Under the pieces are notes generated by a model. That model worked only from the letters and a program-made list of their open reading frames with translations. It was not told the DNA's origin and ran no database searches. Positions 23,870 to 59,897 of a stretch of DNA of 64,000 bases are shown here, piece by piece. The stretch covers positions 1,240,001-1,304,000 of the forward strand of contig NC_011295.1 in NCBI RefSeq assembly GCF_000020945.1, in the 5' to 3' direction. Made by a program: the position numbers and the translations under genes. Each line of letters starts with the position of its first letter. Position 1 is the first letter of the stretch. Source of the DNA: Coprothermobacter proteolyticus DSM 5265 (lineage in GTDB: Bacteria; Coprothermobacterota; Coprothermobacteria; Coprothermobacterales; Coprothermobacteraceae).

Positions 23870-24966
23870 GTTTCAATCCCTTGTAGGTAAGCTAGAAACG
23901 CTTTCTTCGAGTCAATGGACTCTGTAACACGTTCCTTGAGTTTCAAACCCTTGTAGGTAAGCTAGAAACAAGCCTTGCTGTGAGAGAAGACTTTATATGC
24001 CAGGGGCGTTTCAATCCCTTGTAGGTAAGCTAGAAACCAATGAGTCTGGGGTTGAAATGAATAAGAGGAGCATGTTTCAATCCCTTGTAGGTAAGCTAGA
24101 AACCACGCTATGTCTTTAACACGCTGTTCCACCATCATAGTTTCAATCCCTTGTAGGTAAGCTAGAAACATGGCAGGAATTGTATTTCGTAGTGGCGAGC
24201 AAAAAGGTTTCAATCCCTTGTAGGTAAGCTAGAAACTTTTCAATTCCTGGTTGTACGACTCACCAATCTTCAGTTTCAATCCCTTGTAGGTAAGCTAGAA
24301 ACTTTTTAACTGGAGGACTAATCCTCCAGTTCCTCCAAGTTTCAATCCCTTGTAGGTAAGCTAGAAACTGGATAGTTATGGCGATTCAATGTACAGCAAT
24401 CATAAGTTTCAATCCCTTGTAGGTAAGCTAGAAACTTTAATTAGGCCGAAACAAGGATTTAAGGAATTGATGTTTCAATCCCTTGTAGGTAAGCTAGAAA
24501 CCCGACGAGGTATTGTTGGGAAGAGTTAGGGAGTATAGTTTCAATCCCTTGTAGGTAAGCTAGAAACTTTTTTACGGTGAGAGAGAAGTGCTAAGGGGAC
24601 ATATGTTTCAATCCCTTGTAGGTAAGCTAGAAACTTTGCTTTTCAAAATGCCGAACGCAGACATAAGGCCGTTTCAATCCCTTGTAGGTAAGCTAGAAAC
24701 ATTTGCGAGAATGGTGCTTGCGATGTATTCACGATGTTTCAATCCCTTGTAGGTAAGCTAGAAACTACCTACACAACTGCTATGCTCACAAAACGACATG
24801 CCGGTTTCAATCCCTTGTAGGTAAGCTAGAAACTCTAAATTTTTTACACCTTCCTTACTCACGAAGTTTGTTTCAATCCCTTGTAGGTAAGCTAGAAACA
24901 CTGAACCTTCACCGCGCCGAACTACCTCTTCATCGAGTTTCAATCCCTTGTAGGTAAGCTAGAAAC
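23870..24966 (-). CRISPR. CRISPR array 1: 17 repeats, 16 spacers
   Basis: Thirty-base repeats start GTTTCAATCC and end GCTAGAAAC on the plus strand, with spacers of 35-40 bases. Repeat starts: 23870, 23940, 24008, 24074, 24140, 24207, 24273, 24339, 24406, 24472, 24538, 24605, 24671, 24736, 24804, 24870, 24937. The repeat at 23940 has one change (A for T). Read on the minus strand the repeat ends in ATTGAAAC, the usual 5' crRNA handle of type I-B and some type III repeats, so I orient it minus with 23870 as the trailer end. After the last repeat, the first 29 bases of spacer 24701-24735 recur and run straight into peptidase-gene sequence. No leader is visible at that end. Confidence 0.97.
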
Positions 24967-24978
24967 ATTTGCGAGAAT

Positions 24979-26584
24979 GGTGCTTGCGATGTATTTGCAA
25001 ATGGTGGTGAAGTTGCAGAATACTCTTCCATAGGACCGAGCTTAAATGGAGAAATACAGCCTGACTTGCTTGGTTACGTTGGTTATCCAGCTACGTTTAT
25101 GCGGTATTACAACATGTTTGGTGGCACTTCCTGTTCAGCACCTTTTGCAGGTGCTGTAGCTACACTGGTTAAGCAGGCACACAAAGATTGGACTGCTGAA
25201 CAAGTTAGAGCTTCTCTTATGAATACAGCAAGCGTCTTATACAACAAAGTTACTGGTGAGCCTATAAGCGTAATGATACAAGGTTCAGGCTTGATTGATG
25301 GAGTAGCTGCTGTAAAAACACCTGCTTTGATAAGTCCTTATGAAATAGATATGACTGCTACAGGCTTGCACCCTGTAGTATTGACAGTAAAGAACGTTAG
25401 CGATGCGACGCTAACATTTACAGTAACGGTGCAGCCTACTTTAGGTAACTTTGAATACGGTCAAAATGATGGTTTGACGCTGTCTTTAACAAGCAGTAGG
25501 ATTATTGTCAGTCCACGCTTAAGTGCTACCTTAGGTTTAACAGCAAAAGCTGATTTAAGCAAACTTACCAAAGGATCACATGAAGCGCTCATTTGGTTTA
25601 GCAATGGCACTGCTACCTTACATGTGCCCATGCTTATATGGAATGATCTTAATACTATTTGGTGGGAAAGAAGCAATCCGTTTGATGCAGGTTACAACAG
25701 TAAGCTACCACCAAAGCTGATCAATGTCAGAGCTACTAAGCTACCTAACAGTAGTGATGTAGCCATAGATTTTACACTTAACAGAGGTTCTATCTCAGGT
25801 TCTTCATGGGGGTCCCCTGAGCCTTACTGGAGCAACTATGCCGATGAAATACGTGTAGACATCGTTAATCAAAGCGGTGCTACAGTTGCTACAGTGTTTG
25901 ACAAAGGACACTTGCTTATAGGGCACTACAGAGCTGTATGGAATGGTAAAGACAGCAATGGTCAGCCTGTGCCTGCAGGTGAGTATAAGTATGTAATAAC
26001 TGTAACAGACTACTTTACCAACTTTGATATTCCCATAATTGATACAGATACGCAGTATACAGGCTACATCACAGTAGGTAACAATGCTACATTAACGCCT
26101 TCTTTAACTGTAACAGCTTCTTCATTTGCTTATATTCCTGCTAATTACCAATCAAAAAACTCCTACAGTGCCTATCACACCTGCACCGCTTAGCATTATA
26201 GAACTGCAAATAGGCAACCCAGTATTTAAGCTGAACAATCAAGCTTTGCTTTTAGACAGCCCGCCTGTGATTAAAAATGACAGAACACTACTGCCTATAA
26301 GGGCTGTTGTAGAAGCTATGGGTGGACAAGTTAATTGGAACGCTGAAGAAAGACGTGTAGACATAGAATACAGAGGCAAAACTGTTACTTTGTGGATAGG
26401 TAAGAACACAGCAAAGGTTAATGGTAAGGAAGTAATGATAGATCCAAGTAATCCTAATGTAGTGCCAGAGATTATAAACGGACGCACCATGCTTCCTTTA
26501 AGGTTTGTAGCTGAAGCATTAGGTTGTGAAGTAAAGTGGGACGATGCTACTAAAACGATAACAATCCTCTTTCCCTCCTATTGA
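24979..26584 (+). pseudogene. Truncated, frameshifted copy of the S8 peptidase gene
   Basis: This stretch is nearly identical to about 58286-59897, the last two-thirds of the intact S8 peptidase. It retains the serine motif GGTSCSAPFAGA, the FlgD-like AVWNGKDSNGQPVPAGEYKY segment and the C-terminal stalk domain. It lacks the signal peptide and the Asp and His parts of the active site. A two-base deficit near 26150 (NYQSKNSY in place of NYADQNTP) shifts the frame between the peptidase part (ends 26193) and the stalk domain (ends 26584). Its left end is fused inside a CRISPR spacer copy. Not expected to give an active enzyme. Confidence 0.93.
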
Positions 26585-26658
26585 TTAATAAAATGGAAGA
26601 AAACAACTTAAACATGATGTTTATGTCAAGTAAAGACAAAAACACTTTTTCTTATTGC

Positions 26659-26943
26659 TCATTTTTTATTAAGCTTGTAGACAGAACAGCACCTGTTACT
26701 GTAAGCTTTTCCGACTTTTTCCCAGCAAATGATTTGTTCACACTCAGCTTTAGTGGTAAAAGCATTGCAGATATTGTAAGTGCCTTCTACATACCTTAAA
26801 ATGGTTTATTTTGTGGATCTATGAGCAGTATAAACCTGCTGTGCTAAATCGCTTTGCACAGTGCTAACAACTTCACTGTAAAAAGCTTCTAACTCTTCTT
26901 CAGTATTTAGGAATCGCTTAAATTTAGATTCGCTACCGTTCAT
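26659..26943 (-). pseudogene. Remnant of a small gene with internal stop
   Basis: ATG 26943 starts MNGSESKFKRFLNTEEELEA and 25 more codons to TAA at 26806-26808. The same frame then continues without interruption through a cysteine-rich stretch (ICNAFTTKAECEQIICWEKV) to TGA at 26659. This reads as one roughly 95-residue gene with a nonsense codon, or a 45-residue ORF followed by debris. Bases 26824-26900 are identical to a segment at 54814-54890. Family not recognised. Confidence 0.5.
26824..26900 (-). repeat. 77-bp repeat, copy 1 (inverted relative to copy 2)
   Basis: By eye this is a perfect reverse-complement match over 77 bases to 54814-54890. It encodes the shared peptide segment EELEAFYSEVVSTVQSDLAQ in both gene remnants. 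Similarity ends sharply on both sides. Confidence 0.9.
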
Positions 26944-26982
26944 TCTAATTATTATAATCAAATGAATGCTCGTGTAAAAATT

Positions 26983-27015
26983 AACACTGGGAATTTATAA
27001 CATCCCAGTGTTTTT
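26983..27015 (-). terminator. Terminator of the type I RM operon
   Basis: A 10-bp stem (AACACTGGGA / TCCCAGTGTT) is flanked by AATTTTT on the minus-strand exit side and TTT on the other, so it may act both ways. On the minus strand it overlaps the last codons and stop of the zinc-ribbon gene. Confidence 0.75.
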
Positions 27016-27153
27016 AAGCTCATCTTCAGACAGTTCCAGTTTACACACAAAACACCTGCCTACAGTTAAAAATTGCCCGCTCAGGTCGTCTTCCGATTCT
27101 GTATAAAGCTTAAGAACGCAAAAAGAAGCATTACCACAGGCAGGACATTCCAT
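26995..27153 (-). CDS. Small zinc-ribbon protein at the end of the type I RM operon
   Basis: A 52-residue frame from ATG 27153. Two CxxC pairs (CPACG near the N-terminus, CFVCK about 32 residues later) form a likely zinc ribbon, and an acidic ELSEDELKNTG tail follows. AAGGGAG lies about 14 bases before the ATG, a long spacing. It lies 45 bases after the HEPN-domain gene on the same strand and ends in the operon's terminator, so it is probably co-transcribed with the RM genes. The function is unknown; such ribbons often bind nucleic acid or partner proteins. Confidence 0.6.
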   Translation of the reverse strand: MECPACGNASFCVLKLYTESEDDLSGQFLTVGRCFVCKLELSEDELKNTGML

Positions 27154-27197
27154 ACTGTCACGTACAATCTCCCTTTCATCATAGGAAGAACGGATGT

Positions 27198-27893
27198 TTA
27201 TTTTTTTCTTTCCTCAATTAATTCAGGATTTAGTTCGCTATATTCTTCCTTCTTTTCCCTTATTTTTTGGCTTAGGGTATCAGATTGCTGTCTTGTGAGT
27301 TCTTCTTCCTTTGCCTTAAGTTTCTCAAAAACAGTCTCATTAAAAATGTCTTCATATTTGTACGCATCAGATACTTCCTGAATCATTTCCCGGATAAAGG
27401 GTAATATTTCATTAAGAATAAACAAACCCTCATCTACAGGGTTAAAATAATACTCGAAATAGTGGACAATATTGTTACGCATGTTGCCTAATCGAACTAG
27501 GGCCGCTTTTCTTCTGTCCCGCTCTTCGCGAATTCTTTTCAATTCGTGCTTATCCGTAACAGCCTCGTCCTCTTCAATGTTTAGATTAAACATCGCTTCG
27601 TATCGTGAAATAACTTCATTGTACGGAATGGTAAGAAAGGTCTCGCGCCTTTCTTTACGGGTCATAAGGTTTTGTCTCGACTGGATATTTTTAACTTTAT
27701 CCTGAAGCTTCTTAAACCTGACCAGGTGTTCTACACTGTTATTTTTATCCAGCACCAGCACATCGTCAAGCTCACATAAACGCTGTTTCATAAGCCGCTC
27801 AACGGCCACAGCAAATAGTACAACCGACAGCTCAAAATGCTCGCTGTCAATAAAATATCTCAGCGCTTCGGACAGGATAACCGAGGTGTGCAT
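27198..27893 (-). CDS. HEPN-like domain protein in the type I RM operon
   Basis: 231 residues, largely helical and charged. Residues 138-143 read RNNIVH, matching the RX4H catalytic motif of HEPN ribonucleases, in a context (GNMRNNIVHYFEYYF) typical of the fold's last helices. The rest includes a long charged coiled-coil-like C-terminus (KLKAKEEELTRQQSDTLSQKIREKKEEY). The start overlaps the hsdMS stop by one base, so translation is coupled. HEPN RNases act in many anti-phage systems, including RM-linked anticodon nucleases, so a back-up toxin role is plausible but inferred. I do not recognise a named family for the whole protein. Confidence 0.65.
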   Translation of the reverse strand: MHTSVILSEALRYFIDSEHFELSVVLFAVAVERLMKQRLCELDDVLVLDKNNSVEHLVRFKKLQDKVKNIQSRQNLMTRKERRETFLTIPYNEVISRYEAMFNLNIEEDEAVTDKHELKRIREERDRRKAALVRLGNMRNNIVHYFEYYFNPVDEGLFILNEILPFIREMIQEVSDAYKYEDIFNETVFEKLKAKEEELTRQQSDTLSQKIREKKEEYSELNPELIEERKK

Positions 27894-30506
27894 TACTCTC
27901 CAAACACCTCCCTGTCCAGAATCATTTTTATGGTCTGTTTTGCGTTTTCCTTTAGCCTTCTGATATTGGTCAGCGTTTCAAACTGAACGTTAAGGAAATC
28001 CACTATTTTCTGCTGTTTTTCAATTGGAGGAAGCGGAACTTTCAGTGAACTTATTATACTTTGTGATATATAGGGCTGACCTGTCACATTTGCATATTTT
28101 CCCAAATCTTTGCTCAGGAGAAAGTAATAAAGATATTTGGTTTTTAGTTTGTCCTTGTTGGTAACAGTAACAACAATAGCATTATCGGTTACCCAAATTG
28201 GCACATCATAATAATGCACATTTCCACAGTAAGCTCCAACTCTGCCAACCACAATAGTTTCACCAAACAGTAATTTATCGTTATTATCAGTATATCCATA
28301 AATACCGTTGCTACCACAAACTGGATATTTTCCTCTGTTAGAAACAAGCGTATTTGAGATGCTTATGCCATTTCGTAACGCTATTAGTTCACCTAACTCC
28401 ACCCATTCCCAATCTCCTTCAAAAATACTGTCGTCGATTCCAGCTTCAAGAATGGTCTTTTCCATAGCATTGCACTGCTCAATAATAGCCTGCTGCTTGT
28501 CCAAGCGGGCAACCAGTTCCTGTTGAACGGGAAGAGGTGGGAGAGGGATTTGGATATTGGCCAGATCATTCGGGTAAACATGAGGTTGCCCTGCTCCTCG
28601 TTGGAGCTTATATAAATCTTCTTGACGCGATTTAAGTATATAAAAAATATATTTAGTTAATGCTTTTTCCTCATCATTAGACTTAATTGTTGTACAGTCG
28701 GAGGCAAATATTGGAATATCGAAATAGTTGACAAACCCAGCATAAGCACCTGAGGCACTGACGGTAATTATGTTGCCGTCTCTATTGCTTTGGTTATGGT
28801 AATATGCAGGCTCCTGTCCTCCAGCTATCACAGGTACATTACCTTCAACTGTATCAGCTTTAGTTATGGAAGTTCCTTTTTGAATATCACATATTTCCCT
28901 TAGACTAACAACCTCCCACTTTTGCTTTCCTTTTATCGTTTTTCTGTACAGCCCCGGGTTAAGGTTATAATCTTTCGTCTTGATTTCCTCAATCGTCGCC
29001 GTCCAGCAGAAATCATTATCTATAAAATCAGGCAGTTCCTTTGTTGGGTTATTAAGCCAATCTATCCATCTTCTAAACACTTCCACCGCTTTAGGCAGGT
29101 TCCCACAAGGCGGTTCGTAAATGTTCGGGTCATCACCCTGGAAAGCTCCGTTAATTGGCCTTCTCTGGGTTGTTAAGGTAAATCCGTCTTCTTTCACATC
29201 AACAAACAGTACCTGCTTTGTGGTGTAAGCATTTTGTTTCTTTGTCTCGTCCCATTCTTCTTTTGTGGGCTTTTCAAAATACAGCACTGTCGTTTTGACA
29301 CCGGAATACGGCTGAAAAATGCCTGCCGGCATGGAAAAGACAGCTTTCAAATCAAACTCTCGTAAGAGCTTCATGCGTATATTCTTGAATACAGAGGAAT
29401 TGTCAAACAGAATCTTGTCCAAGATTATAACTACTGCTCTGGAACGCTTTTTACCTGGTTCAGAAGGTCTCAACGCTGCCATAATATGCTGGATGAACAA
29501 TGCTTCGTAGCGTTTGGCATGGAACTCAAAAGTGCCAACCCGCGACTGAGCAAGTGGACCATACGGTGGGTTAGTTAACACTACATCATACTTTTCTTTA
29601 TGTTCTAACTGTGCTCGGTTGTCTAAGCTGTCAGCCTCAAAGAGGTTGGATTTGCCGTCATTGTGCAATATCATATTCATGAGGGCAAGCTTGTAAACGT
29701 CTGGAGCCTTCTCCACAGCATAAAGAGACTCTTCCTTCAGTTTTCGGTAAAGCATTTCAGCTTCATCAAATTGAACCCCATTATATGCGGCAGTAGACTC
29801 GTTAACTCTCATCCCCGCTTTTACAAGATTATCAATTTTACTCTTTACTACTTCGAAGGCACGCAGAATAAAGCCTCCCGTACCAGCCGCAGGGTCATAT
29901 ATTTTTTCCCCAATTTCCCGGGTCAGCAAGTTCCACCATGAAATGAATGATGTGGCGAGGAGTAAAATACTGACCGTACTGTTTTTGTTCGCCAAGCTTT
30001 TGAACAACAAATTCGTATGCTCTGCCCATAACGTCAAAATTTTGTTCAAGCTCAAGGTCTTTCAGCCGTTTTATCAATTCTTTAATGGTCGGGCTGTACC
30101 TTATACGCCATATATGATTTTTAAATAGCCGTCTGAAAAGGCTTAAATCCCTGCCATCGTGGTCCTTAACTTCGGCCAGTTCGGAAAATATGTTTCTAAC
30201 ATAATCGACTATAGTAAACTCTCCATCGTCAGTCTTTACGGTTTTTCCGTCACTTGCCAAAATCTTTTCTGCCCATGTGGAAAACCTCAGGTGATTTGGT
30301 AAATCAGGCACAAATTTAGTTCCATCCAAACGGGCGAGTTCTTCTCTTTGTTTTTCTCTCTCGTCAAAGAGCTTTAGAAACAAAAAATAGCTAAATTCTT
30401 CCAGATACTCGGTGGTTTTGAGAGTATCGTCTCGAAAAATATTGGCAATATCCCAAAGCTCAGAACCAAGCCTGTGAAAATCTACTTTGTTATTGTTTTG
30501 CGCCAT
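27893..30506 (-). pseudogene. Type I restriction-modification fused methyltransferase-specificity gene (hsdM-hsdS), frameshifted
   Basis: The 5' frame (30506 to 29895) has the HsdM N-terminal helical domain and QYGQYFTPRHI. The 3' frame continues with IYDPAAGTGGF (AdoMet binding), the catalytic NPPYG, and then without a stop two target-recognition domains and their coiled coils (PLPPLPVQQELVARLD and PLPPIEKQQKIVDFL), so M and S are one polypeptide of about 870 residues. The frames join if one G is removed from CCCGGG at 29917-29922, which restores ELADPEIGEKIYDPAAG. The extra base is either a real inactivating or phase-variable insertion, or a sequencing error. The gene lies 14 bases behind hsdR and overlaps the HEPN-like gene by one base. 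Confidence 0.88.
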
Positions 30507-30520
30507 TAATATTCCCTCCG

Positions 30521-32767
30521 TTACACATCAAGAAATGATACTGCTTTTATCTCGTCATAAAGCTGAACAAATTTGTCCAGCGAACCGAATAGTCCCTTTA
30601 TCCGGGCAATTCCACCCTTTTGTTGAAGAAGCTGGCTGTTAGAAAACTGGGTAAAGGTAAGAGCGGGATTGCGTTTCTTAAAATCGTAGAACATCATAAT
30701 AAATTCCACTTGTTCATCGTTCAAATGCTTTTTCTCCTTCAAATGAGCAATAACAGCATCCCTGTTCTTTTCTTCAACAGTCTTAAACCTTGTTTTACCA
30801 AGGGCGACATCAATAAAATCTTTGTAAGTGGCAGTGACTTCGCCGTAAATATCCCTTAAGGTACTGATGTCAAACCCAAAAGCCTCAAGATATTTTTCAT
30901 CAACCGGAATACCAGGATTCAAAGCTTCCCATGATAAAACTGCCTGAACAAATCTTTCTTTTAAAACAGTCTTTTCTTTAATAGCTTTAAGTTGCGGCTC
31001 AATTTGCTTTCTAATATGGTCAAAAGCAGATGAAGTAATAACCTCTGACTTGACTATCCAGACGGGGACGTCAGCAATCACCATTTCGATTTTTTCAGTT
31101 TCCTTAGGTTCCTTACCCTCACCATCTTCTTTATCTGAAGGTATCTTTTCACCGTCAGAAGATACCTCTGTTTCTTCAGTAGTATCAATTATTTCATCAG
31201 TTTCTAAGGTTTCATCGGTGACGACCTCTTCAATACCTGCAAGGTCTACAAAGTCGATGAGTTTAAAGCTTTCCTTTGTCTTGCCGTGTTCTTGCTCGTT
31301 ACACTTGCGAGTGGCACGTCCTTTCATCTGAACATAGAGAATTTTTGACTTTGTGGGCCTAGCCATTACCAGAACTTCGATGTCAGGGGCATCAATACCG
31401 GTGGATAGCATATCTACGGAAACGGCAATACGAATTTCACTGTCGATTTCCTGAAACTTTCTAATCAATTCAGAGGCGTTTCTCACCTGATTATGTATTA
31501 CAACTATAAAGTCTTCTGCTTCGCTTGAGTCCTTTGGGAGTTTGTTCAGTTCGTTGTATTTTGTTATCAACGCATCGCGCAAATGATTGGCATGCGCTAT
31601 GCTTGCCGCAAAAACCAGTGTCTTTGGAATCGTATGCGTCTGCTCATATCCTATCACTTCAAAATATTTTTCGGCTATTAATTCATTCCTTCGCGGGACA
31701 TCCACACGTCTGCCAAGGTCTTCCGGCTCAAAGTCAAAACCCATGTCATGAATCCCACTGAGGTCTACATTGGTCAGGAACTTATATCTCTCGGTAAAAG
31801 CCAGTATGCCGTCTTTAACTCCCTGATAGTAGCTGTATCTGAATACCGGCTCTCCAAAATAATCGTCGGTACTCTGCGTTTCCTTATCAGAAGGAGTTGC
31901 TGTTAACCCTAAAACTTTGGCCTTGCCAGTCCTGAAATGCTCAATAACCGTGTGCCAATCTCCAAAATATGACCGATGGCACTCGTCAAGAATTACCAAG
32001 TCAAAAAAATTATTCGGGTATGCACGATACTTATCATTTACATACAAAAACTGAATTGTTGAAACAGAAATATCGTTATATTTATCCTCTTTTGTGCCGG
32101 TCAAGCGGTTTATTTTAAAGGTATCACCTAATACCTTATTGAAAGAACGGACTGTCTGTTCAGCAAGAGAATCCCTATCTACTAAAAATAAGACTCTCCG
32201 AACAAGGCCGACTTTGTAAAGCTTGCTGATTATTCCCGCCGCTGTTATCGTTTTTCCTGTTCCGGTAGCCATTTCGATATAGGTTCTGTCTCTGCCTAAT
32301 TGAAATGCGCTTACCACCTGTGAGACGGCAATTTTTTGATAATTCCTTAAACCCGCCAAAAGAATATCAGTTTCCGGGTTTAGAAAATCTTTTATCTCTG
32401 CATAGGTCATTAGCCTGCTGATTTTTTCTGGTCTGGTATTTGCTTTAAGATTCTGCCGGTAAAATACCTTGCCGTCTGAAGCAAAAATTAAAAAGACTTC
32501 CTTGCCACTTTCATTTAGTTTTTTTGCGTAATTTTTAGCCTGTGCTAAAGCTGCGTTTAAATCCATACCCTGTTTTTTGGCTTCAATAATTGCAACAGGT
32601 AGGCTGTTCACTAAAATAGCATAGTCTGCTCTTTCTCCGCCCGGTATAGGATACTCCTTAGTTATTTGAGTAAAATCAGCCAAATTCCAATTTAGTGCTC
32701 TTAAATGTTCGTCAATTAAGGACTTTGCATTTTCCTCCGTATTCACTATTTCTTTCCATAATGCCAT
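30521..32767 (-). CDS. hsdR: Type I restriction enzyme R subunit
   Basis: 748 residues, in the shorter EcoKI/EcoEI-like group. An N-terminal nuclease domain shows ERADYAILVNSLPVAIIEAKK (PD-ExK-type D...ExK, about residues 44-65). The SF2 helicase follows with Walker A EMATGTGKT, the DEAD-box-like DECHRS, GLTATPSD and the later QMKGRATR motif VI. An acidic insertion (about residues 510-560) precedes the C-terminal domain. It translocates and cleaves unmodified DNA together with the M and S functions encoded next. It is the first gene of the operon, behind a clear promoter. Confidence 0.92.
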   Translation of the reverse strand: MALWKEIVNTEENAKSLIDEHLRALNWNLADFTQITKEYPIPGGERADYAILVNSLPVAIIEAKKQGMDLNAALAQAKNYAKKLNESGKEVFLIFASDGKVFYRQNLKANTRPEKISRLMTYAEIKDFLNPETDILLAGLRNYQKIAVSQVVSAFQLGRDRTYIEMATGTGKTITAAGIISKLYKVGLVRRVLFLVDRDSLAEQTVRSFNKVLGDTFKINRLTGTKEDKYNDISVSTIQFLYVNDKYRAYPNNFFDLVILDECHRSYFGDWHTVIEHFRTGKAKVLGLTATPSDKETQSTDDYFGEPVFRYSYYQGVKDGILAFTERYKFLTNVDLSGIHDMGFDFEPEDLGRRVDVPRRNELIAEKYFEVIGYEQTHTIPKTLVFAASIAHANHLRDALITKYNELNKLPKDSSEAEDFIVVIHNQVRNASELIRKFQEIDSEIRIAVSVDMLSTGIDAPDIEVLVMARPTKSKILYVQMKGRATRKCNEQEHGKTKESFKLIDFVDLAGIEEVVTDETLETDEIIDTTEETEVSSDGEKIPSDKEDGEGKEPKETEKIEMVIADVPVWIVKSEVITSSAFDHIRKQIEPQLKAIKEKTVLKERFVQAVLSWEALNPGIPVDEKYLEAFGFDISTLRDIYGEVTATYKDFIDVALGKTRFKTVEEKNRDAVIAHLKEKKHLNDEQVEFIMMFYDFKKRNPALTFTQFSNSQLLQQKGGIARIKGLFGSLDKFVQLYDEIKAVSFLDV

Positions 32768-32800
32768 TTGTTTAGCTTCCTTTCAATTCATTACACTATT

Positions 32801-32829
32801 AGTATGATACATTGTGACAATTATGTCAA
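32801..32829 (-). promoter_or_regulatory. Promoter of the type I RM operon with dyad over the -35 box
   Basis: On the minus strand TTGACA (32829-32824), a 17-bp spacer and CATACT (32806-32801) precede hsdR. The dyad TGACA-ATTA-TGTCA (32815-32828) overlaps the -35 box, a natural place for a repressor, though no controller gene is seen nearby. Confidence 0.65.
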
Positions 32830-32840
32830 CACTACTAACA

Positions 32841-33224
32841 CTATCTACCACATGCAGGGCTGCTTTCTAAGATGTAGCCTGTAGGTGTTTTGGTGTAGCT
32901 TATACTGCCTTCTTTGTCTGTAAGCGTAGCTGTAATAACAAGTGATTTATTGGTATATGGGTTAATCGGTTCTGTAGTAAAATAAGTTGCACTTGTTAAA
33001 AGGGTATTTAATTCATCTAACGTAGGATAGCTGTCAGTTAATTTTTCTGCACGCCAGCGGTATAGCAGTGTTTCTATGTTATGGACTGTTGCACAAAAAC
33101 TTGCTTGCTTAGCTCTTTCTGTATAGTCCCTATACATAGGAATAACCACGGCTACCAGTAGCACGATTACTGCTACTACAAGCATGAGTTCTATTAAAGT
33201 AAACCCTTTATTTATCCTACACAT
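32841..33224 (-). CDS. Type IV pilin-like / pseudopilin protein
   Basis: 127 residues. The prepilin peptidase site is clear: a short basic leader then GFTLIELMLVVAVIVLLVAVVIP, with the glutamate at position +5 and a hydrophobic helix. The rest holds a polar globular domain (TDSYPTLDELNTLL, TDKEGSISYTKTPTGYILE) ending in SSPACGR. It overlaps the preceding 66-residue gene by 8 bases. No assembly genes are near, so it is a minor pilin by itself, possibly brought in with the island. Confidence 0.82.
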   Translation of the reverse strand: MCRINKGFTLIELMLVVAVIVLLVAVVIPMYRDYTERAKQASFCATVHNIETLLYRWRAEKLTDSYPTLDELNTLLTSATYFTTEPINPYTNKSLVITATLTDKEGSISYTKTPTGYILESSPACGR

Positions 33225-33417
33225 GGCTTAACTGCTCAAGCCCAGCTTTTACTTTCCTCTCTTCTTTAGTAATTTCACTGGTAAGTTTTTTCTGCACAAG
33301 TTTATAAGCATCTGCAAAGGTGAAGCTTTCTCCTAATTGTTCTACGTATTCTGGATATAAAGCAAACTGCAAGTCATACTGAGAACAGCTGTTGTTTGTT
33401 AAAGGTTTTACAAACAT
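33217..33417 (-). CDS. Small hypothetical protein, possibly truncated at its 5' end
   Basis: 66 residues (for example SFTFADAYKLVQKKLTSEIT and KAGLEQLSHV), helical in appearance, with no recognised family. It overlaps the pilin-like gene by 8 bases. Its start lies only 15 bases from a CRISPR repeat (33433) and lacks a good ribosome site, so it may be the 3' part of a gene cut when the array was broken. Confidence 0.45.
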   Translation of the reverse strand: MFVKPLTNNSCSQYDLQFALYPEYVEQLGESFTFADAYKLVQKKLTSEITKEERKVKAGLEQLSHV

Positions 33418-33432
33418 GTGCGCTACATCAAT

Positions 33433-33529
33433 GTTTCAATCCCTTGTAGGTAAGCTAGAAACTACGTCAACCAATTGTCAGCACCATCCCAGGCTTAATG
33501 TTTCAATCCCTTGTAGGTAAGCTAAAAGC
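33433..33529 (-). CRISPR. CRISPR fragment 2: two repeats, one spacer
   Basis: Repeats at 33433-33462 (same as array 1) and 33500-33529, with a 37-base spacer. The second repeat ends GCTAAAAGC in place of GCTAGAAAC, so it is degenerate at the edge facing the DpnII-like genes. Same orientation as array 1. Confidence 0.9.
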
Positions 33530-33721: not shown

Positions 33722-34705
33722 CTATTTTTTAAATATAAATAGATATTCGTGCGCTATTAGCAAAAAATTATATTTTATGCTCTGCTTTTTCCAGTAGCCT
33801 GTTGAAGTACAGTTGTGCTGTTCCTTTATGACGATCTCCTTTAGAGTAAGCCCCGCTTTGCAAAATACTTCCATAACTCTAAAACCAAGAGGTATAATGT
33901 TACCCTTTCTGCGCGTATCACCCATAAGAACAGCGCAGAATCTACCTCTTTTTAGGACCCTATATGATTCTGACGCTACTTTATACATTTCTTTTAAAAA
34001 TTCAGGTATGTCGTAATGTGAAAGATCTCCCTCTATATTATCGCTATATTTGATAATATTGCTATATGGCGGATGAGTGCAGATAAGATCAATGCTACTA
34101 TCTTTTACGAAATCGAGGTTTCTTGCATCTCCAATATGTACGTCAGCCAAGCCGCACTTATGTTCAAAATTAACATTTGACAGCGCAAGTTTTACTGCAT
34201 CGGGGTTTATATCGACGCCTAACCCCCTTCTTCCCAATAACTTTGCCTCCACAAGTGTAGTCCCACTTCCTACAAACTGATCCAGTACAACATCATTTTC
34301 ATTTGAATATCTCAATATCACATTTCTGGGTATATAAGGTGACCAGTTACCCCGGTATTTGCCAGAATGAGTTGCCCAATCACCTCTGTCAGGAAAACCC
34401 CATACAGTAGTTGTTTCCAAAGAAAAATCCTCAGGCTCCCATATTTCAGTTTTTGCTTTGCTAACATTATAATTTGTCATTTCTTCTTTTACTAATGTCC
34501 TATAACCAAGCACACCTTTTACGAACCTTTCAGTCAAGGAATTCTTTTGCGCTACATCTTTTATGCTCATGCCATTCTTTATATCTTTGTTTATTTCGTC
34601 TACGATACGCTGATAATCTTCAACGTGGTACGATTCAAGATGTTTTGCATACTCCGTCTTGGTGCATTTATAGCCACATATAGGACACTTCACTTTTAGC
34701 GACAT
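33722..34705 (-). CDS. Beta-class DNA methyltransferase of a DpnII-like system, with N-terminal zinc finger
   Basis: 327 residues. The N-terminus has a C2H2-like finger (CPICGYKC, then HLESYH), followed by a helix-turn-helix-like stretch (SIKDVAQKNSLTERFVKGVLG). The methyltransferase domain has DQFVGSGTTLVEAKLLGRRGLGVDIN for AdoMet binding and THPPYS as the catalytic (D/T)PPY variant. DpnII loci of streptococci carry a second methyltransferase (DpnA) beside the Dam-type one, and this gene holds that place. It lies 4 bases after the nuclease gene. It may protect GATC or a related site; the exact base modified is not certain. Confidence 0.78.
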   Translation of the reverse strand: MSLKVKCPICGYKCTKTEYAKHLESYHVEDYQRIVDEINKDIKNGMSIKDVAQKNSLTERFVKGVLGYRTLVKEEMTNYNVSKAKTEIWEPEDFSLETTTVWGFPDRGDWATHSGKYRGNWSPYIPRNVILRYSNENDVVLDQFVGSGTTLVEAKLLGRRGLGVDINPDAVKLALSNVNFEHKCGLADVHIGDARNLDFVKDSSIDLICTHPPYSNIIKYSDNIEGDLSHYDIPEFLKEMYKVASESYRVLKRGRFCAVLMGDTRRKGNIIPLGFRVMEVFCKAGLTLKEIVIKEQHNCTSTGYWKKQSIKYNFLLIAHEYLFIFKK

Positions 34706-34709
34706 ACCT

Positions 34710-35642
34710 TTATAGTCCTTCCAATATAATGTTCTCCAACACTCCGTTTTCCAGCATGGAGAGGTTTAATATATAATCGACTTCATCAAACGCTTCCCTC
34801 AATGGTTTTTTTGCCGTCTTCCAGCCCAAGCCGTCTGTTATCCAAATAAAGGTATGCTGCGGCGTTTCTCTTTTTAAAAACCTACACAAAGTCACAAATT
34901 CTCCTGCCACTGCTTTTAACTTAGAGCCTCCTCCACCGTAGTAGTTCGTCTCGACAAGATAAAGCTTATCCCCATTGTCTATGGCGAAATCGAATGAACG
35001 CTCCGATTTATCAACTTTTACCTCATAACCAAACAATTCATTTATTTTATGAGCAGTAGCTTGTGAAATATAATTATAGCGATTCTTGGCGCAAATCCTT
35101 TTTATCAATAGCTCGGTTATCATTTCCATAGCCGCACCACTTCTATTCTTCCTTGCATTCGTATCAAGGCCAACTTCGACACCAGTAACATAATCTACGA
35201 CGCTTTTTATATTCTCATTTTTAAACATAGCAAGCAGGCCTGTCTTATCTGCAAATTCGGTCAATGATGCTATTTCTTCAGTTGTGTATGAAGACTTTTT
35301 CTCAAAAGAGTATTCTTTGTAATTAAAGATATTATCATCAAGAGGGTCGAGCACTTTAACGTTTTTCGCTCGCCATGCAACAAGTACTGGCAAAACATCA
35401 ATTACCTCCGGATACTTTGAGACAAGCTCTGCAAACTTTTCGGTTATATTCTCTTTCCCAACGAGATAGTTAAGCAAGTTAAGCGAGATTTCTATATCCT
35501 CCACCTTGTTAATCACTTTTTCCCATGCTACAAAAAAATCCCAGCTTATAATAGTTTCTTTCAAATTTCTTATAAGGTATTCAAATACATCATCCTCATC
35601 CTTGCAACTTATAAGTTTATAAAATAGGTTGCTATATTTCAT
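34710..35642 (-). CDS. DpnII/MboI-family restriction endonuclease (GATC)
   Basis: 310 residues, matching the DpnII family (PF04556) length. Recognisable parts are ARKNRSGAAMEMITELLIKRI, RSFDFAIDNGDKLYLVETNYYGGGGSKLK (the nuclease core with D and E residues) and the later FIWITDGLGWKTAKKPLREAF. The family cuts unmethylated GATC. It overlaps the Dam-type methyltransferase gene by 11 bases and is followed by the second methyltransferase, which reproduces the dpnM-dpnB-dpnA content in a different order. Confidence 0.88.
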   Translation of the reverse strand: MKYSNLFYKLISCKDEDDVFEYLIRNLKETIISWDFFVAWEKVINKVEDIEISLNLLNYLVGKENITEKFAELVSKYPEVIDVLPVLVAWRAKNVKVLDPLDDNIFNYKEYSFEKKSSYTTEEIASLTEFADKTGLLAMFKNENIKSVVDYVTGVEVGLDTNARKNRSGAAMEMITELLIKRICAKNRYNYISQATAHKINELFGYEVKVDKSERSFDFAIDNGDKLYLVETNYYGGGGSKLKAVAGEFVTLCRFLKRETPQHTFIWITDGLGWKTAKKPLREAFDEVDYILNLSMLENGVLENIILEGL

Positions 35643-36579
35643 ATACTCCTCTTTTTACTTTATAATTTGTCACAATCAGCTCACTAATGCTCGCCCTTCC
35701 ATCGGCCTTAGCATTGATGCTGCGCTTAGCGTAAACTCTATAAATATGAAAATCCTTATATAATTCGTCAAAAAAGCTATCATTTAAATCAACGTTTTTC
35801 GGATCAGAGTTGCTGAGCATTAGCAAAGCACCCATCTTATTCATCTCTCTAAAGACTTGAGCTAACTCGATTTGATCGTCATCGGTAAAGTCATATCTGC
35901 TATATGATGTAAAACGGGCTGTAGCAGTAAGCGGCCTGTATGGCGGATCAATGTAGACAAAGCTATCCTTATCTACATAATTCAAGCTCGCCTTATAATC
36001 AGCAGCGAATATACTAACTTTTTTAAGCACATTGCTAACCGAATATAGGTTTTCTTCGTCGTAGATTTTAGGATTTTTATAGCGCCCCGCCGGCACATTG
36101 AAAAGTCCCGCCTTATTTACTCTATACAAACCATTAAAGCATGTGTGATTGAGAAATATGAATTGAGCGGCTCTTTCCACATTCAAGCCCGGCTGTTTAT
36201 TGGCATTGTTGTATAAATTCCTAATATCATAATACATATGCTTACGTTCTTCTTCATCCGCCCTCAAGTATTCCCGTTCCAAAAATGAAAGTATCTCAAT
36301 GAGCTCATTAACGCAATATTTTACAACATTATAAGCATTTATCAAATCTTCGTTAATGTCAAAAACAAAGGCTTCCTTAACATTATAGCTTTGCAGAATG
36401 TCAAACAGCACAGCGCCTCCACCAACAAAGGGTTCGATATATCTTTTAACCCGGCCAGTCTGAAGTGCTCTGGGATAATAATCCCTAAAGGTATCCAATA
36501 GTTGAGCTTTACCGCCAGCCCATTTAACAAACGGGCGTGCCAGGGTTACCGACACATCGTTGAAAGCAGTTTTTCTCAT
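35632..36579 (-). CDS. Dam/DpnM-type adenine DNA methyltransferase (D12 class)
   Basis: 315 residues. It has the D12-class N-terminal motif PFVKWAGGKAQLLDTF, the AdoMet block YIEPFVGGGAVLFDIL, FLNHTCFNGLYRVNKAGLFNVPAGRY, and the catalytic YIDPPYRP (DPPY). It methylates adenine, most likely in GATC, and protects the host against the adjacent DpnII-like enzyme. First gene of the three-gene operon. Its start is 50 bases from a CRISPR repeat. Confidence 0.92.
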   Translation of the reverse strand: MRKTAFNDVSVTLARPFVKWAGGKAQLLDTFRDYYPRALQTGRVKRYIEPFVGGGAVLFDILQSYNVKEAFVFDINEDLINAYNVVKYCVNELIEILSFLEREYLRADEEERKHMYYDIRNLYNNANKQPGLNVERAAQFIFLNHTCFNGLYRVNKAGLFNVPAGRYKNPKIYDEENLYSVSNVLKKVSIFAADYKASLNYVDKDSFVYIDPPYRPLTATARFTSYSRYDFTDDDQIELAQVFREMNKMGALLMLSNSDPKNVDLNDSFFDELYKDFHIYRVYAKRSINAKADGRASISELIVTNYKVKRGVYEI

Positions 36580-36628: not shown

Positions 36629-36790
36629 GTTTCAATCCCTCGTAGGTAAGCTAGAAACTAAACTTGTCGCTTTCCTTCAATTACCTTTGTGCTGGTTTCA
36701 ATCCCTTGCAGGTAAGCTAGAAACGAAGATCTGGGTCCATAGCCTCGTCGCTCAAGGATCGTTTCAATCCCTCGTAGGTAAGCTAGAAAC
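36629..36790 (-). CRISPR. CRISPR fragment 3: three variant repeats, two spacers
   Basis: Repeats at 36629, 36695 and 36761 with 36-base spacers. They differ from array 1 at one position each: CCCTCGTAGG in the outer two and CCCTTGCAGG in the middle one. It lies next to cas2 on the side expected for the leader end, if the array is read on the minus strand. Confidence 0.93.
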
Positions 36791-36962
36791 ACCCACCGTC
36801 CCTGCAGTAAAACGCCTCTTGCACAAAAACTTTGCCTGCGATGACGGAAAGCCTTTTCTAAAACATTTTACCATGAAGTATTGGATTCCTCGATGCCGTT
36901 GCTCAATGAGTGCATTCTGTCAAAGTCCCGGGTTTTTTGCATTATCTGGGGTCGACAGATTT
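36791..36962 (-). promoter_or_regulatory. Probable CRISPR leader region
   Basis: The 172 bases between cas2 and the first repeat on the minus strand hold no gene. In type I-B-like loci the leader, with promoter and integration signals, lies between cas2 and the first repeat. The assignment rests on position and on the repeat orientation, not on a recognised leader sequence. Confidence 0.5.
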
Positions 36963-37226
36963 TTATATGATGTTAGAGGTGTCATGCTTTTCTCGACCAA
37001 TAATCTCTTTTTTCGTCAAGTAGGCTTCTCTAAGTTTGAAGAATATGATACTATCCTTTTCTGGCTCTATTATTTTCTTAAGTTCCGTCTTGAGTTTCTC
37101 CAACTTCGATTCTGTAATTTGTCCCTCAAAAACAGAATTCTGAATCCATGTAAGATACTTCCTCCCCGTCTTTAGAACCTTCGCAACGCGTTCTTCTCCA
37201 ACATCGTAGACCATTATCACATACAT
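36963..37226 (-). CDS. cas2: CRISPR-associated endoribonuclease Cas2
   Basis: 87 residues, intact. It starts MYVIMVYDVGEERVAKVLK with the conserved aspartate after the first strand, then RKYLTWIQNSVFEGQIT, the usual Cas2 core. It serves with Cas1 in spacer acquisition. The upstream cas1 is broken, so acquisition from this locus is probably lost unless another cas1 exists. No interference genes (cas3, Cascade) are in the window. Confidence 0.93.
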   Translation of the reverse strand: MYVIMVYDVGEERVAKVLKTGRKYLTWIQNSVFEGQITESKLEKLKTELKKIIEPEKDSIIFFKLREAYLTKKEIIGREKHDTSNII

Positions 37227-54716: not shown

Positions 54717-54953
54717 ATACTTTCCTTAGGTTGCGAGGGACACTGGGACGATGAAAGCAGGAACACTGCCTTAAAAGAAGTTATCCGTGATAGAGCAGAA
54801 AAACCTGTTACGCAAGAAGAGTTAGAAGCTTTTTACAGTGAAGTTGTTAGCACTGTGCAAAGCGATTTAGCACAGCAGGTTTATACTGCTGCTTATGAGG
54901 TTTATTTAAGAGAATGCAGTAAAATAGTATGTAAAGTTGGGAAACTCATATAA
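54717..54953 (+). pseudogene. 3' remnant of a gene resembling a leucine-rich-repeat protein N-cap
   Basis: An open frame of 78 codons without a usable start: CEGHWDDESRNTALKEVIRD, then KPVTQEELEAFYSEVVSTVQ and QQVYTAAYEVYLREC to TAA at 54951. The first part recalls the helical cap before leucine-rich repeats in bacterial surface proteins; this is only a resemblance. It directly precedes the C1 peptidase gene. It shares 77 identical bases, inverted, with the remnant at 26.8 kb. Confidence 0.45.
54814..54890 (+). repeat. 77-bp repeat, copy 2
   Basis: Exact reverse complement of 26824-26900 as read by eye. Both copies lie within remnants of small genes, and both regions also carry copies of the S8 peptidase gene. 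Confidence 0.9.
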
Positions 54954-54976
54954 GGTAAGGAAAGGGGTGTAAAAGA

Positions 54977-57235: not shown

Positions 57236-57251
57236 GGACAGAAAGCGTAAA

Positions 57252-57310
57252 AGAGAGAGACATGGAGCTCAACTATTACGTTTCCATGTCTCTCTTCGGT
57301 TTTATTTTCT
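57252..57310 (+). terminator. Terminator after the C1 peptidase gene
   Basis: A 14-bp near-perfect stem (AGAGAGACATGGA / TCCATGTCTCTCT) with a loop of about 17 bases is followed by TTTTATTTT. It is 16 bases past the stop. Confidence 0.85.
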
Positions 57311-57557
57311 TTTGCTGTTACGGCATTGAGCTGAACACACTACCGGTTACTACTATCCAAGAGCTTAGCAGCGTCACCATGGTTGTTGCACACGCTTGCT
57401 TTAGTCCACATTAGAACATATGGTGAGCTACTGCAAGCGGTTTTACCAGGTGTAATAGCCACACAGAGCTACCCTTTTTAAGCATCCTTCTTCTTCAGAA
57501 GCATTAAAATATGAATAGGGGCATAAGCCCTAGTTTTGATAGAGGGAGGTTTTGGAG

Positions 57558-59897
57558 GTGAGGAAAGGTTTTAAACAGCTTAGCAGTGCTATAAGCCTGC
57601 TCTTGGTTCTCCTTTTGCTTATCCCACTCACAAATTCGTACGCTTCTGCTAATTCGAATGTGAACACGCAAACATTGGATCGTATTAAACAAGCTTACGA
57701 CATTGCTGGTGTTACCACGCTTTGGAATATGGGTCTTACAGGTTCAGGTATGAAAATTGGTATCATCGATGATGGAATAGATTATAAAGTTCCAGACTTA
57801 GGTGGTTGTTTAGGTAGCGGTTGTAAAGTAGCTGGAGGCTGGAACTTTGACGAAAACTCACCAGACATCATGCCCCGAAACCGTGATTATTCTCATGGAA
57901 CACTTCTTAGTGGACAGATGGTCGCTAATGGCAGTATGAAAGGTGTAGCATACGAAGCCACTATTTACGGCTATTCAGGACAATCGTTCCCAGATGTAGG
58001 CTTTAAAGGGTTAGAGCGTGCCATAGAAGATAAAATAGACTACTTAAACTTTTCCTCTGGTTTTACTGTAGGAGGTAGAGAACCCAACTACACAAGAGAG
58101 TTTACAGACCCTTACTTTAAGTCTTTGTATGAAAAAGCAGAAAAACAAGGCATGGTAATTTTTGTATCACCAGGGAACTTTGGTAGTGCCCTTTTAGAAG
58201 ATGCACGCCATTACTTCTTACACTTCCGTGGTGGCACGTTCTTTTCACCAGTAGGCGAGCGTGTAGCTGAACCTACTACGCTTTCTATAGGTGCTTACGA
58301 TGTATTTGCAAATGGTGGTGAAGTTGCAGAATACTCTTCCATAGGTCCGAGCTTAAATGGAGAAATACAGCCTGACTTGCTTGGCTACGTTGGTTATCCA
58401 GCTACGTTCATGCGGTATTACAACATGTTTGGTGGCACTTCTTGTTCAGCACCTTTTGCTGGTGCTGTAGCTACACTGGTTAAGCAGGCACACAAAGATT
58501 GGACTGCTGAACAAGTTAGAGCTTCTCTTATGAATACAGCAAGCGTCTTATACAACAAAGTTACTGGTGAACCTATAAGCGTAATGATACAAGGTTCAGG
58601 CTTGATTGATGGAGTAGCTGCTGTAAAAACACCTGCTTTGATAACTCCTTATGAAATAGATATGACTGCTACAGGCTTGCATCCTGTAGTATTAACAGTA
58701 AAGAACGTTACCGATGCGACGCAAACATTTACAGTAACGGTGCAACCTACTTTAGGCAACTTTGAATACGGTCAAAATGATGGTTTGACGTTTTCTTTAA
58801 CAAGTAGCAGGATTGTTGTCAGTCCACGCTTAAGTGCTACCTTAGGTTTAACAGCAAAAGCTGATTTAAGCAAACTTACCAAAGGATCACATGAAGCGCT
58901 CATATGGTTTTACAGCGATACTGCTACCTTACATGTGCCCATGCTTATATGGAACGACCTTAATACTATTTGGTGGGAAAGAAGCAATCCGTTTGATGCA
59001 GGTTACAACAGTAAGCTACCACCAAAGCTGATTAATGTCAGAGCTACTAAGCTACCTAACAGTAGTGATGTAGCCATAGATTTTACACTTAACAGAGGTT
59101 CTATCTCAGGTTCTTCATGGGGGTCCCCTGAGCCTTACTGGAGCAACTATGCTGATGAAATACGTGTAGACATCGTTAATCAAAGCGGTGCTACAGTTGC
59201 TACAGTGTTTGACCAAGGACACTTGCTTATAGGACACTACAGAGCTGTATGGAATGGTAAAGACAGCAATGGTCAGCCTGTGCCTGCAGGTGAGTATAAG
59301 TATGTAATAACTGTAACAGACTACTTTACCAGCTTTGATATTCCCATAATTGATACAGATACGCAGTATACAGGCTACATCACAGTAGGTAACAATGCTA
59401 CATTAACGCCTTCTTTAACTGTAACAGGTTCTTCATTTGCTTATATTCCTGCTAATTACGCTGATCAAAACACACCTACAGTGCCTATCACACCCGCACC
59501 GCTTAGCATTATAGAACTGCAGATAGGTAACCCAGTATTTAAGCTAAACAATCAAGCTATGCTTTTAGACAGCCCACCTGTGATTAAGAACGACAGAACG
59601 CTACTGCCTATAAGGGCTGTTGTAGAAGCTATGGGTGGACAAGTTAATTGGAACGCCGAGGAAAAACGTGTAGACATAGAATACAGAGGCAAAACTGTTA
59701 CTTTGTGGATAGGTAAGAACACAGCAAAGGTCAATGGCAAGGAAGTAATGATAGATCCAAGTAATCCTAATGTAGTGCCAGAGATTATAAACGGACGCAC
59801 CATGCTTCCTTTAAGGTTTGTAGCAGAGTCTTTAGGTTGTCAAGTGGAGTGGGATGACAAAACCAAAACGATAACAATCCTTTTCCCCTCCTATTAG
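57558..59897 (+). CDS. Secreted S8 (subtilisin-like) peptidase with C-terminal stalk domain
   Basis: About 779 residues from GTG 57558, eight bases after GGGAGG; TTG 57552 is too close to it. Signal peptide, then directly the S8 domain, without an inhibitor_I9 propeptide: aspartate in IGIIDDGIDYKVPDLGG, histidine in YSHGTLLSGQM, serine in GGTSCSAPFAGAVATLV. Later come a beta domain, a FlgD-like segment (LIGHYRAVWNGKDSNGQPVP) and a stalk domain (about 655-775: RTLLPIRAVVEAMGGQVNWN, RTMLPLRFVAESLG). A truncated copy lies at 25-26.6 kb. Likely anchored at the surface for protein breakdown. Confidence 0.92.
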   Translation: MRKGFKQLSSAISLLLVLLLLIPLTNSYASANSNVNTQTLDRIKQAYDIAGVTTLWNMGLTGSGMKIGIIDDGIDYKVPDLGGCLGSGCKVAGGWNFDENSPDIMPRNRDYSHGTLLSGQMVANGSMKGVAYEATIYGYSGQSFPDVGFKGLERAIEDKIDYLNFSSGFTVGGREPNYTREFTDPYFKSLYEKAEKQGMVIFVSPGNFGSALLEDARHYFLHFRGGTFFSPVGERVAEPTTLSIGAYDVFANGGEVAEYSSIGPSLNGEIQPDLLGYVGYPATFMRYYNMFGGTSCSAPFAGAVATLVKQAHKDWTAEQVRASLMNTASVLYNKVTGEPISVMIQGSGLIDGVAAVKTPALITPYEIDMTATGLHPVVLTVKNVTDATQTFTVTVQPTLGNFEYGQNDGLTFSLTSSRIVVSPRLSATLGLTAKADLSKLTKGSHEALIWFYSDTATLHVPMLIWNDLNTIWWERSNPFDAGYNSKLPPKLINVRATKLPNSSDVAIDFTLNRGSISGSSWGSPEPYWSNYADEIRVDIVNQSGATVATVFDQGHLLIGHYRAVWNGKDSNGQPVPAGEYKYVITVTDYFTSFDIPIIDTDTQYTGYITVGNNATLTPSLTVTGSSFAYIPANYADQNTPTVPITPAPLSIIELQIGNPVFKLNNQAMLLDSPPVIKNDRTLLPIRAVVEAMGGQVNWNAEEKRVDIEYRGKTVTLWIGKNTAKVNGKEVMIDPSNPNVVPEIINGRTMLPLRFVAESLGCQVEWDDKTKTITILFPSY

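What the first reader, a model, noticed from the sequence alone, without database searches (positions are those of the whole stretch)
24701..25060. CRISPR array fused inside a spacer to a truncated peptidase gene
After the last full repeat (24937-24966) come 29 bases identical to the start of spacer 24701-24735 (ATTTGCGAGAATGG...GATGTATT). The sequence then switches within GGTGCTTGCGATGTATT to the S8 peptidase gene. The intact peptidase (58286-58302) has GGTGCTTACGATGTATT at the same place, so spacer and gene share a 17-base segment with one mismatch and the switch lies inside it. A recombination at this microhomology between a duplicated spacer and the gene would explain the end of the array, the lost leader side and the 5'-truncated peptidase copy. 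It is also possible that the spacer derives from a relative of this gene.
Basis: partly seen in the sequence, partly recalled or inferred. Interest (0 to 1): 0.75.

Follow-up and report, generated by a model that had tools for sequence, protein, structure and literature searches.

The report
CRISPR array spliced into protease gene
In this heat-loving bacterium a decaying CRISPR array was joined, inside a duplicated phage-derived spacer, to the back part of a protease gene at a short chance sequence match; it is a clear, real scar of a dismantled immune locus, informative but not a new kind of system.

Summary
After the last repeat (24937-24966) come 29 nt identical to spacer 24701-24735. The sequence then becomes a 5'-truncated S8 peptidase (24979-26582, 96% to 58290-59895). 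The two parts overlap by 17 nt with one mismatch.

The leader side is indeed the broken side. The crRNA strand is minus, and array A3 (36629-36790) still has the leader, cas2 and a cas1 stump. A sister genome (Coprothermobacter sp. UBA10526) keeps type I-B cas genes beside the same leader. Cas1 is absent from this genome.

The spacer is probably not peptidase-derived. It reads FARMVLAMYSR against FARMVLAMHSQ of a phage portal protein, with TAA/TGA beside the protospacer. Two neighbouring spacers match phages of the same group perfectly. So the 17-nt overlap is most likely a chance microhomology used by illegitimate recombination.

The donor was probably not the intact gene: 44 of 62 differences lie at third codon positions, so both copies had been evolving as functional genes. 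The event belongs to the break-up of a I-B locus, in which array pieces A1, A2 and A3 are now separated by restriction-modification genes. Ordinary in kind, unusually well documented.

The parts
23870..24966 (-). CRISPR array A1: 17 repeats, 16 spacers (crRNA strand minus; trailer at left, leader side at right)
   Evidence: 16 of 17 repeats perfect; left flank 90% conserved with G003 up to the first repeat
24701..24735 (-). complete copy of spacer SpX (35 nt), related to a phage portal gene
   Evidence: frame +1 FARMVLAMYSR vs phage FARMVLAMHSQ; TAA/TGA right flank at the protospacer
24937..24966 (-). last full repeat of A1 on the broken side
24967..24995 (-). second, truncated copy of SpX (29 of 35 nt)
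24979..24995 (+). 17-nt overlap between spacer and S8 gene (one mismatch at 24986): recombination zone
24979..26582 (+). 5'-truncated, frameshifted S8 peptidase copy; lacks about the first 244 codons incl. the presumed catalytic Asp and His; keeps the GTSCSAP serine motif
   Evidence: 2-nt indel near 26146-26150
26824..26905 (.). 82-nt arm of an inverted repeat with 54809-54890 (fragment of a coding 3' end)
27198..32767 (-). type I restriction-modification genes between A1 and A2
   Evidence: no match in four related genomes
33433..33529 (-). array fragment A2: 2 repeats (second with 2 mismatches), 1 spacer
33722..36579 (-). DpnII-type restriction-modification genes between A2 and A3
36629..36790 (-). 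array fragment A3: 3 repeats, 2 spacers
36791..36962 (-). leader of the I-B locus, still next to A3
   Evidence: 86% to G002 between cas2 and first repeat; aligned to G004 at the same distance from the repeats, score 59 vs null max 18
36963..37226 (-). intact cas2
   Evidence: 93% to G002 Cas2; TIGR01573
37236..37482 (-). cas1 stump: C-terminal residues about 254-335, frameshifted
   Evidence: TIGR03641 positions 270-324
57558..59897 (+). intact S8 peptidase paralogue

Best explanation
This is a recombination scar in a decaying type I-B CRISPR-Cas locus of Coprothermobacter. A phage-derived spacer (SpX) became duplicated in the array, probably by misalignment of repeats. One copy then recombined illegitimately with an S8 peptidase allele at a chance 17-nt near-match. 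This joined the array, on its leader side, to the 3' two thirds of the peptidase gene. The rest of the spacer, any further units toward the leader and the first third of the peptidase were lost or displaced. A1 is now cut off from the only surviving leader (next to A3), cas1 is a stump, and A1 is most likely inactive. Shown: the junction, the repeated spacer, the leader polarity, cas1 loss, the divergence pattern of the peptidase copies. Inferred: phage portal origin of SpX, order of events, the enzyme pathway, and that A1, A2 and A3 were once one array.
For: Junction sequence and overlap. Duplicated spacers occur elsewhere with this repeat: L102 has a tandem one. Leader on the right: ATTGAAAC end of the minus-strand repeat; G002 order cas4-cas1-cas2-leader-repeat; G004 the same side with an aligned leader; L103 array then leader; TAA to the right of both perfect protospacers, i.e. 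5'-TTA on the crRNA side. Phage origin of SpX: protein match 9/11 where 150 shuffles reach at most 8, in the portal reading frame, PAM-like flank. No homology of spacer and peptidase outside the 17 nt: 2 of 12 matches to the left, 2 of 6 to the right. No Cas1 genome-wide, while G002 and G004 have it. Peptidase differences 44 of 62 at third positions.
Against: No strain with the unbroken arrangement was found, so the pre-event state is inferred. SpX matches the known portal genes at only 24 of 35 nt; by nucleotides alone 4 of 150 shuffles do as well. The flanks of A2 and A3 show no recognisable spacer remnants, so one original array is not proven. Absence of cas genes other than cas1 was tested only in the window and 12 kb on each side.
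Confidence: 0.78

Rival explanations
1. The spacer was acquired from a relative of the S8 peptidase, and the overlap reflects shared ancestry (a self-targeting or near-self spacer).
For: 16 of 17 nt identical, and the peptidase reading frame runs through the spacer copy (ENGACDVF).
Against: Identity stops sharply on both sides of the 17 nt. The spacer fits a phage portal gene in another frame with a PAM-like flank. Two other spacers of A1 are perfect phage matches with the same flank. No TAA/TGA flank at the peptidase site (sequence).
Confidence: 0.06
2. Assembly chimera joining an array to a gene at a short shared sequence.
For: Such chimeras exist: L103 passes from phage DNA into an array through a 37-nt spacer identical to its protospacer.
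Against: There the shared stretch is 37 identical nt; here it is 17 nt with a mismatch. The fragment differs from the intact gene at 4%, so it is not that gene assembled twice. The genome is held as a single contig.
Confidence: 0.05
3. A1 never belonged to the A3 array: it was a separate array whose own leader was deleted together with the front of a neighbouring peptidase copy.
For: No recognisable spacer halves flank A2 or A3. A simple deletion between direct microhomologies would give this junction.
Against: Same repeat, same strand, same order trailer-A1-A2-A3-leader-cas2, and only one leader found in the genome. Note that this rival shares the microhomology joint with the best explanation and differs only in the wider history.
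Confidence: 0.3
4. The second SpX was acquired independently from the same phage site, rather than by duplication.
For: Repeated acquisition from one protospacer is possible.
Against: Identical over all 29 nt with the same end next to the repeat. Simple duplication makes up 86% of complex array events, new insertion of the same spacer 1% (PMC11472070).
Confidence: 0.1

Closest known systems
Type I-B CRISPR-Cas locus of Coprothermobacter sp. UBA10526 (G002 C147 / L098)
   Same: same leader (86%), cas2 93% identical, repeat identical over the 24 nt visible, same order
   Different: intact cas1, cas4, cas3, cas5, cas7; here cas1 is a stump, the rest was not found, and the array is in three pieces
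Degenerate or orphan CRISPR arrays after loss of cas genes
   Same: array without adaptation genes and without an adjoining leader
   Different: here the exact recombination joint lies inside a spacer and can be read
Spacer duplication by repeat misalignment (SpacerPlacer, PMC11472070)
   Same: a spacer present twice in one array, four units apart
   Different: the second copy is cut short and joined to a chromosomal gene
Protospacer-spacer chimeric contigs in IMG/VR (L102, L103)
   Same: array continuous with a gene through a spacer
   Different: those share the whole 36-37 nt spacer and are probably assembly artefacts

Membership tests
Type I-B CRISPR-Cas locus | repeat family and regular spacing | tested here: met
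   RF01315 hits, spacing 65-70 nt
Type I-B CRISPR-Cas locus | leader adjoining the array | tested here: not met
   absent at A1; present only at A3
Type I-B CRISPR-Cas locus | cas1 and cas2 adaptation genes | tested here: not met
   cas2 intact, cas1 stump only
Type I-B CRISPR-Cas locus | interference genes cas3, cas5, cas6, cas7, cas8b | tested here: inconclusive
   none in the window or 12 kb on either side; the PF10040 search also missed the real Cas6 of G004, so it is not informative
Illegitimate recombination at microhomology | short overlap of both parents at the joint, no homology beyond | tested here: met
   17 nt, one mismatch, sharp edges
Illegitimate recombination at microhomology | independence from RecA / pathway used | not testable with these tools
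   needs genetics
Self-targeting spacer | near full-length match and PAM at the chromosomal site | tested here: not met
   20 of 35 nt match, 16 of them within the 17-nt overlap; no TAA/TGA flank
Functional S8 subtilase (for the truncated copy) | Asp-His-Ser triad in one open frame | tested here: not met
   Asp and His part missing, frameshift in the C-terminal part

The most novel reading that the evidence does not exclude
Chance microhomologies between phage-derived spacers and the host chromosome act as recurrent break-up points of CRISPR arrays, so that arrays without cas genes are dismantled, and acquire gene fragments, at spacers rather than at repeats.
Probability: 0.12. Interest if true: 0.55.

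Novelty: new member of a known kind. Interest (0 to 1): 0.36.

Why it matters
Loss of CRISPR immunity is usually seen only as absence. Here the joint is readable to within nine to seventeen bases, with the spacer's likely viral source, the leader polarity and the sister locus known. It shows that spacers, not only repeats, can serve as recombination substrates. It also ties Coprothermobacter arrays to a phage population in a metagenome (two perfect spacer matches).

Tried and rejected
Leader on the left of A1: first considered because the left flank is conserved with G003 and reaches the first repeat; dropped after the G002, G004 and L103 layouts and the repeat ends showed the leader on the right. 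Spacer from a peptidase relative: rejected (see rivals). Exact searches for SpX pieces in viral contigs, for a degenerate pattern in the peptidase frame and for a 30-nt piece in genome contigs: nothing. Array against annotated phage and plasmid records: only weak hits. Spacer remnants at the A2 and A3 edges: none above shuffles. A relative with an orthologue of the whole peptidase: none; the best is a 40% paralogue in UBA10526. No paper found on this locus.

Full report
Setting. The window is bases 1240001-1304000 of a single-contig genome of 1,424,912 bp.

The observation. Array A1 has 17 repeats (23870-24966), 16 of them perfect. After the last repeat, 24967-24995 equals the first 29 of 35 nt of spacer 24701-24735, here called SpX. 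From 24979 the sequence is an S8 peptidase gene, 96% identical to the intact gene at 57558-59897. The overlap is 17 nt with one mismatch. The junction carries the spacer's base at the mismatch, so the switch is in the last nine bases unless the donor allele already had that base. In the genome no other site comes within one mismatch of the 17-mer.

Chance. A joint without homology would show an overlap of about one base, so a 16/17 overlap at the joint is not accidental. But for some spacer of the arrays a 16/17 match somewhere in the chromosome is expected about twice (shuffled spacers). A chance microhomology of this quality was therefore available for recombination.

Polarity. The minus-strand repeat ends in ATTGAAAC, the usual crRNA 5' handle (own knowledge). 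In G002 the order is cas7-cas5-cas3-cas4-cas1-cas2-leader-repeat, and its leader region matches window 36791-37080 at 86%. In G004 cas1 also lies to the right of the array, and its flank aligns with the window's at the same distance from the repeats (score 59; shuffles at most 18). L103 carries the same leader to the right of its array. Two A1 spacers match phage DNA perfectly, 37/37 and 36/36, both with TAA on the right, which is 5'-TTA on the crRNA side.

The locus is dismantled. A3 (36629-36790) is followed by the leader, an intact cas2 and a frameshifted cas1 stump. No Cas1 is found in the whole genome, whereas G002 and G004 have it. A1, A2 and A3 share repeat and strand and lie in the order expected of one array. 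Between them lie the peptidase fragment with type I restriction-modification genes (A1-A2) and DpnII-type genes (A2-A3). The stretch 26580-33432 has no counterpart in four relatives. That A1-A3 were one array is inferred, not shown; their edges give no recognisable spacer halves.

Source of the spacer. A repeat search of viral contigs led to Coprothermobacter phages of one metagenome. SpX aligns at 24 of 35 nt to their portal gene (SPP1_portal, phrog_64). In the portal frame it reads FARMVLAMYSR against FARMVLAMHSQ. Shuffled spacers reach at most 8 matching residues in 150 trials, against 9 of 11 for SpX. The flank is TAA or TGA, as at the perfect protospacers. By nucleotides alone the match would not be convincing (4 of 150 shuffles equal or better). 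Against the peptidase, identity ends sharply at both edges of the 17 nt, and the frame differs. The spacer is therefore probably phage-derived and its likeness to the peptidase accidental.

The donor peptidase. The fragment and the intact gene differ at 62 positions, 44 of them third codon positions; 39 codons differ silently and 18 by residue. Most of the divergence thus built up while both copies were under selection, before the truncation. The donor was a second allele or paralogue, not the intact gene. G002 lacks the intact gene and keeps only its last 63 bp, so this region is labile. The fragment lacks the presumed catalytic Asp and His, has no start codon near the joint and is frameshifted in its C-terminal part.

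Mechanism. Best account: SpX was duplicated (four-unit distance; duplication is the commonest complex event in arrays, PMC11472070); one copy recombined at the microhomology with a peptidase allele; leader-side units and the peptidase's first third were lost or displaced. The stretch is shorter than RecA normally needs (own knowledge), so an illegitimate route such as template switching is likely. Artefact is unlikely: apparent chimeras of this shape exist in IMG/VR but share 37 identical nt.

Verdict. Real and well resolved, ordinary in kind: a scar of CRISPR locus decay.

Noticed in passing
L102, L103, L104 (IMG/VR metagenome 3300006674): Contigs filed as viral contain long Coprothermobacter-type CRISPR arrays joined to phage DNA; in L103 the joint is a spacer identical to its protospacer (37 nt), so they look like assembly chimeras.
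   Followed up: partly
window 24170-24206 and 24436-24471: Spacers with perfect matches to contractile-tail phages of that metagenome (L107:15005, L109:6598), with TAA beside the protospacer (5'-TTA PAM on the crRNA side).
   Followed up: yes
window 54752-59832: In G002 this 5-kb stretch (papain-like protease with Cu_amine_oxidN1 domains, intact S8 gene) is missing and only the last 63 bp of the S8 gene remain; the breakpoints look like two Cu_amine_oxidN1 3' ends.
   Followed up: partly
window 26824-26905 and 54809-54890: 82-nt inverted repeat, 98% identical (77 nt perfect), apparently a fragment of a coding 3' end, on both sides of a 28-kb segment.
   Followed up: no
window 33233-33432: An open frame with no Pfam match runs directly into the first repeat of A2, so a second gene may be fused to the array there.
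   Followed up: partly
L079 3785-3828 (G003): The conserved trailer flank ends in 19 nt of a CRISPR repeat followed by unrelated sequence at the contig end.
   Followed up: no
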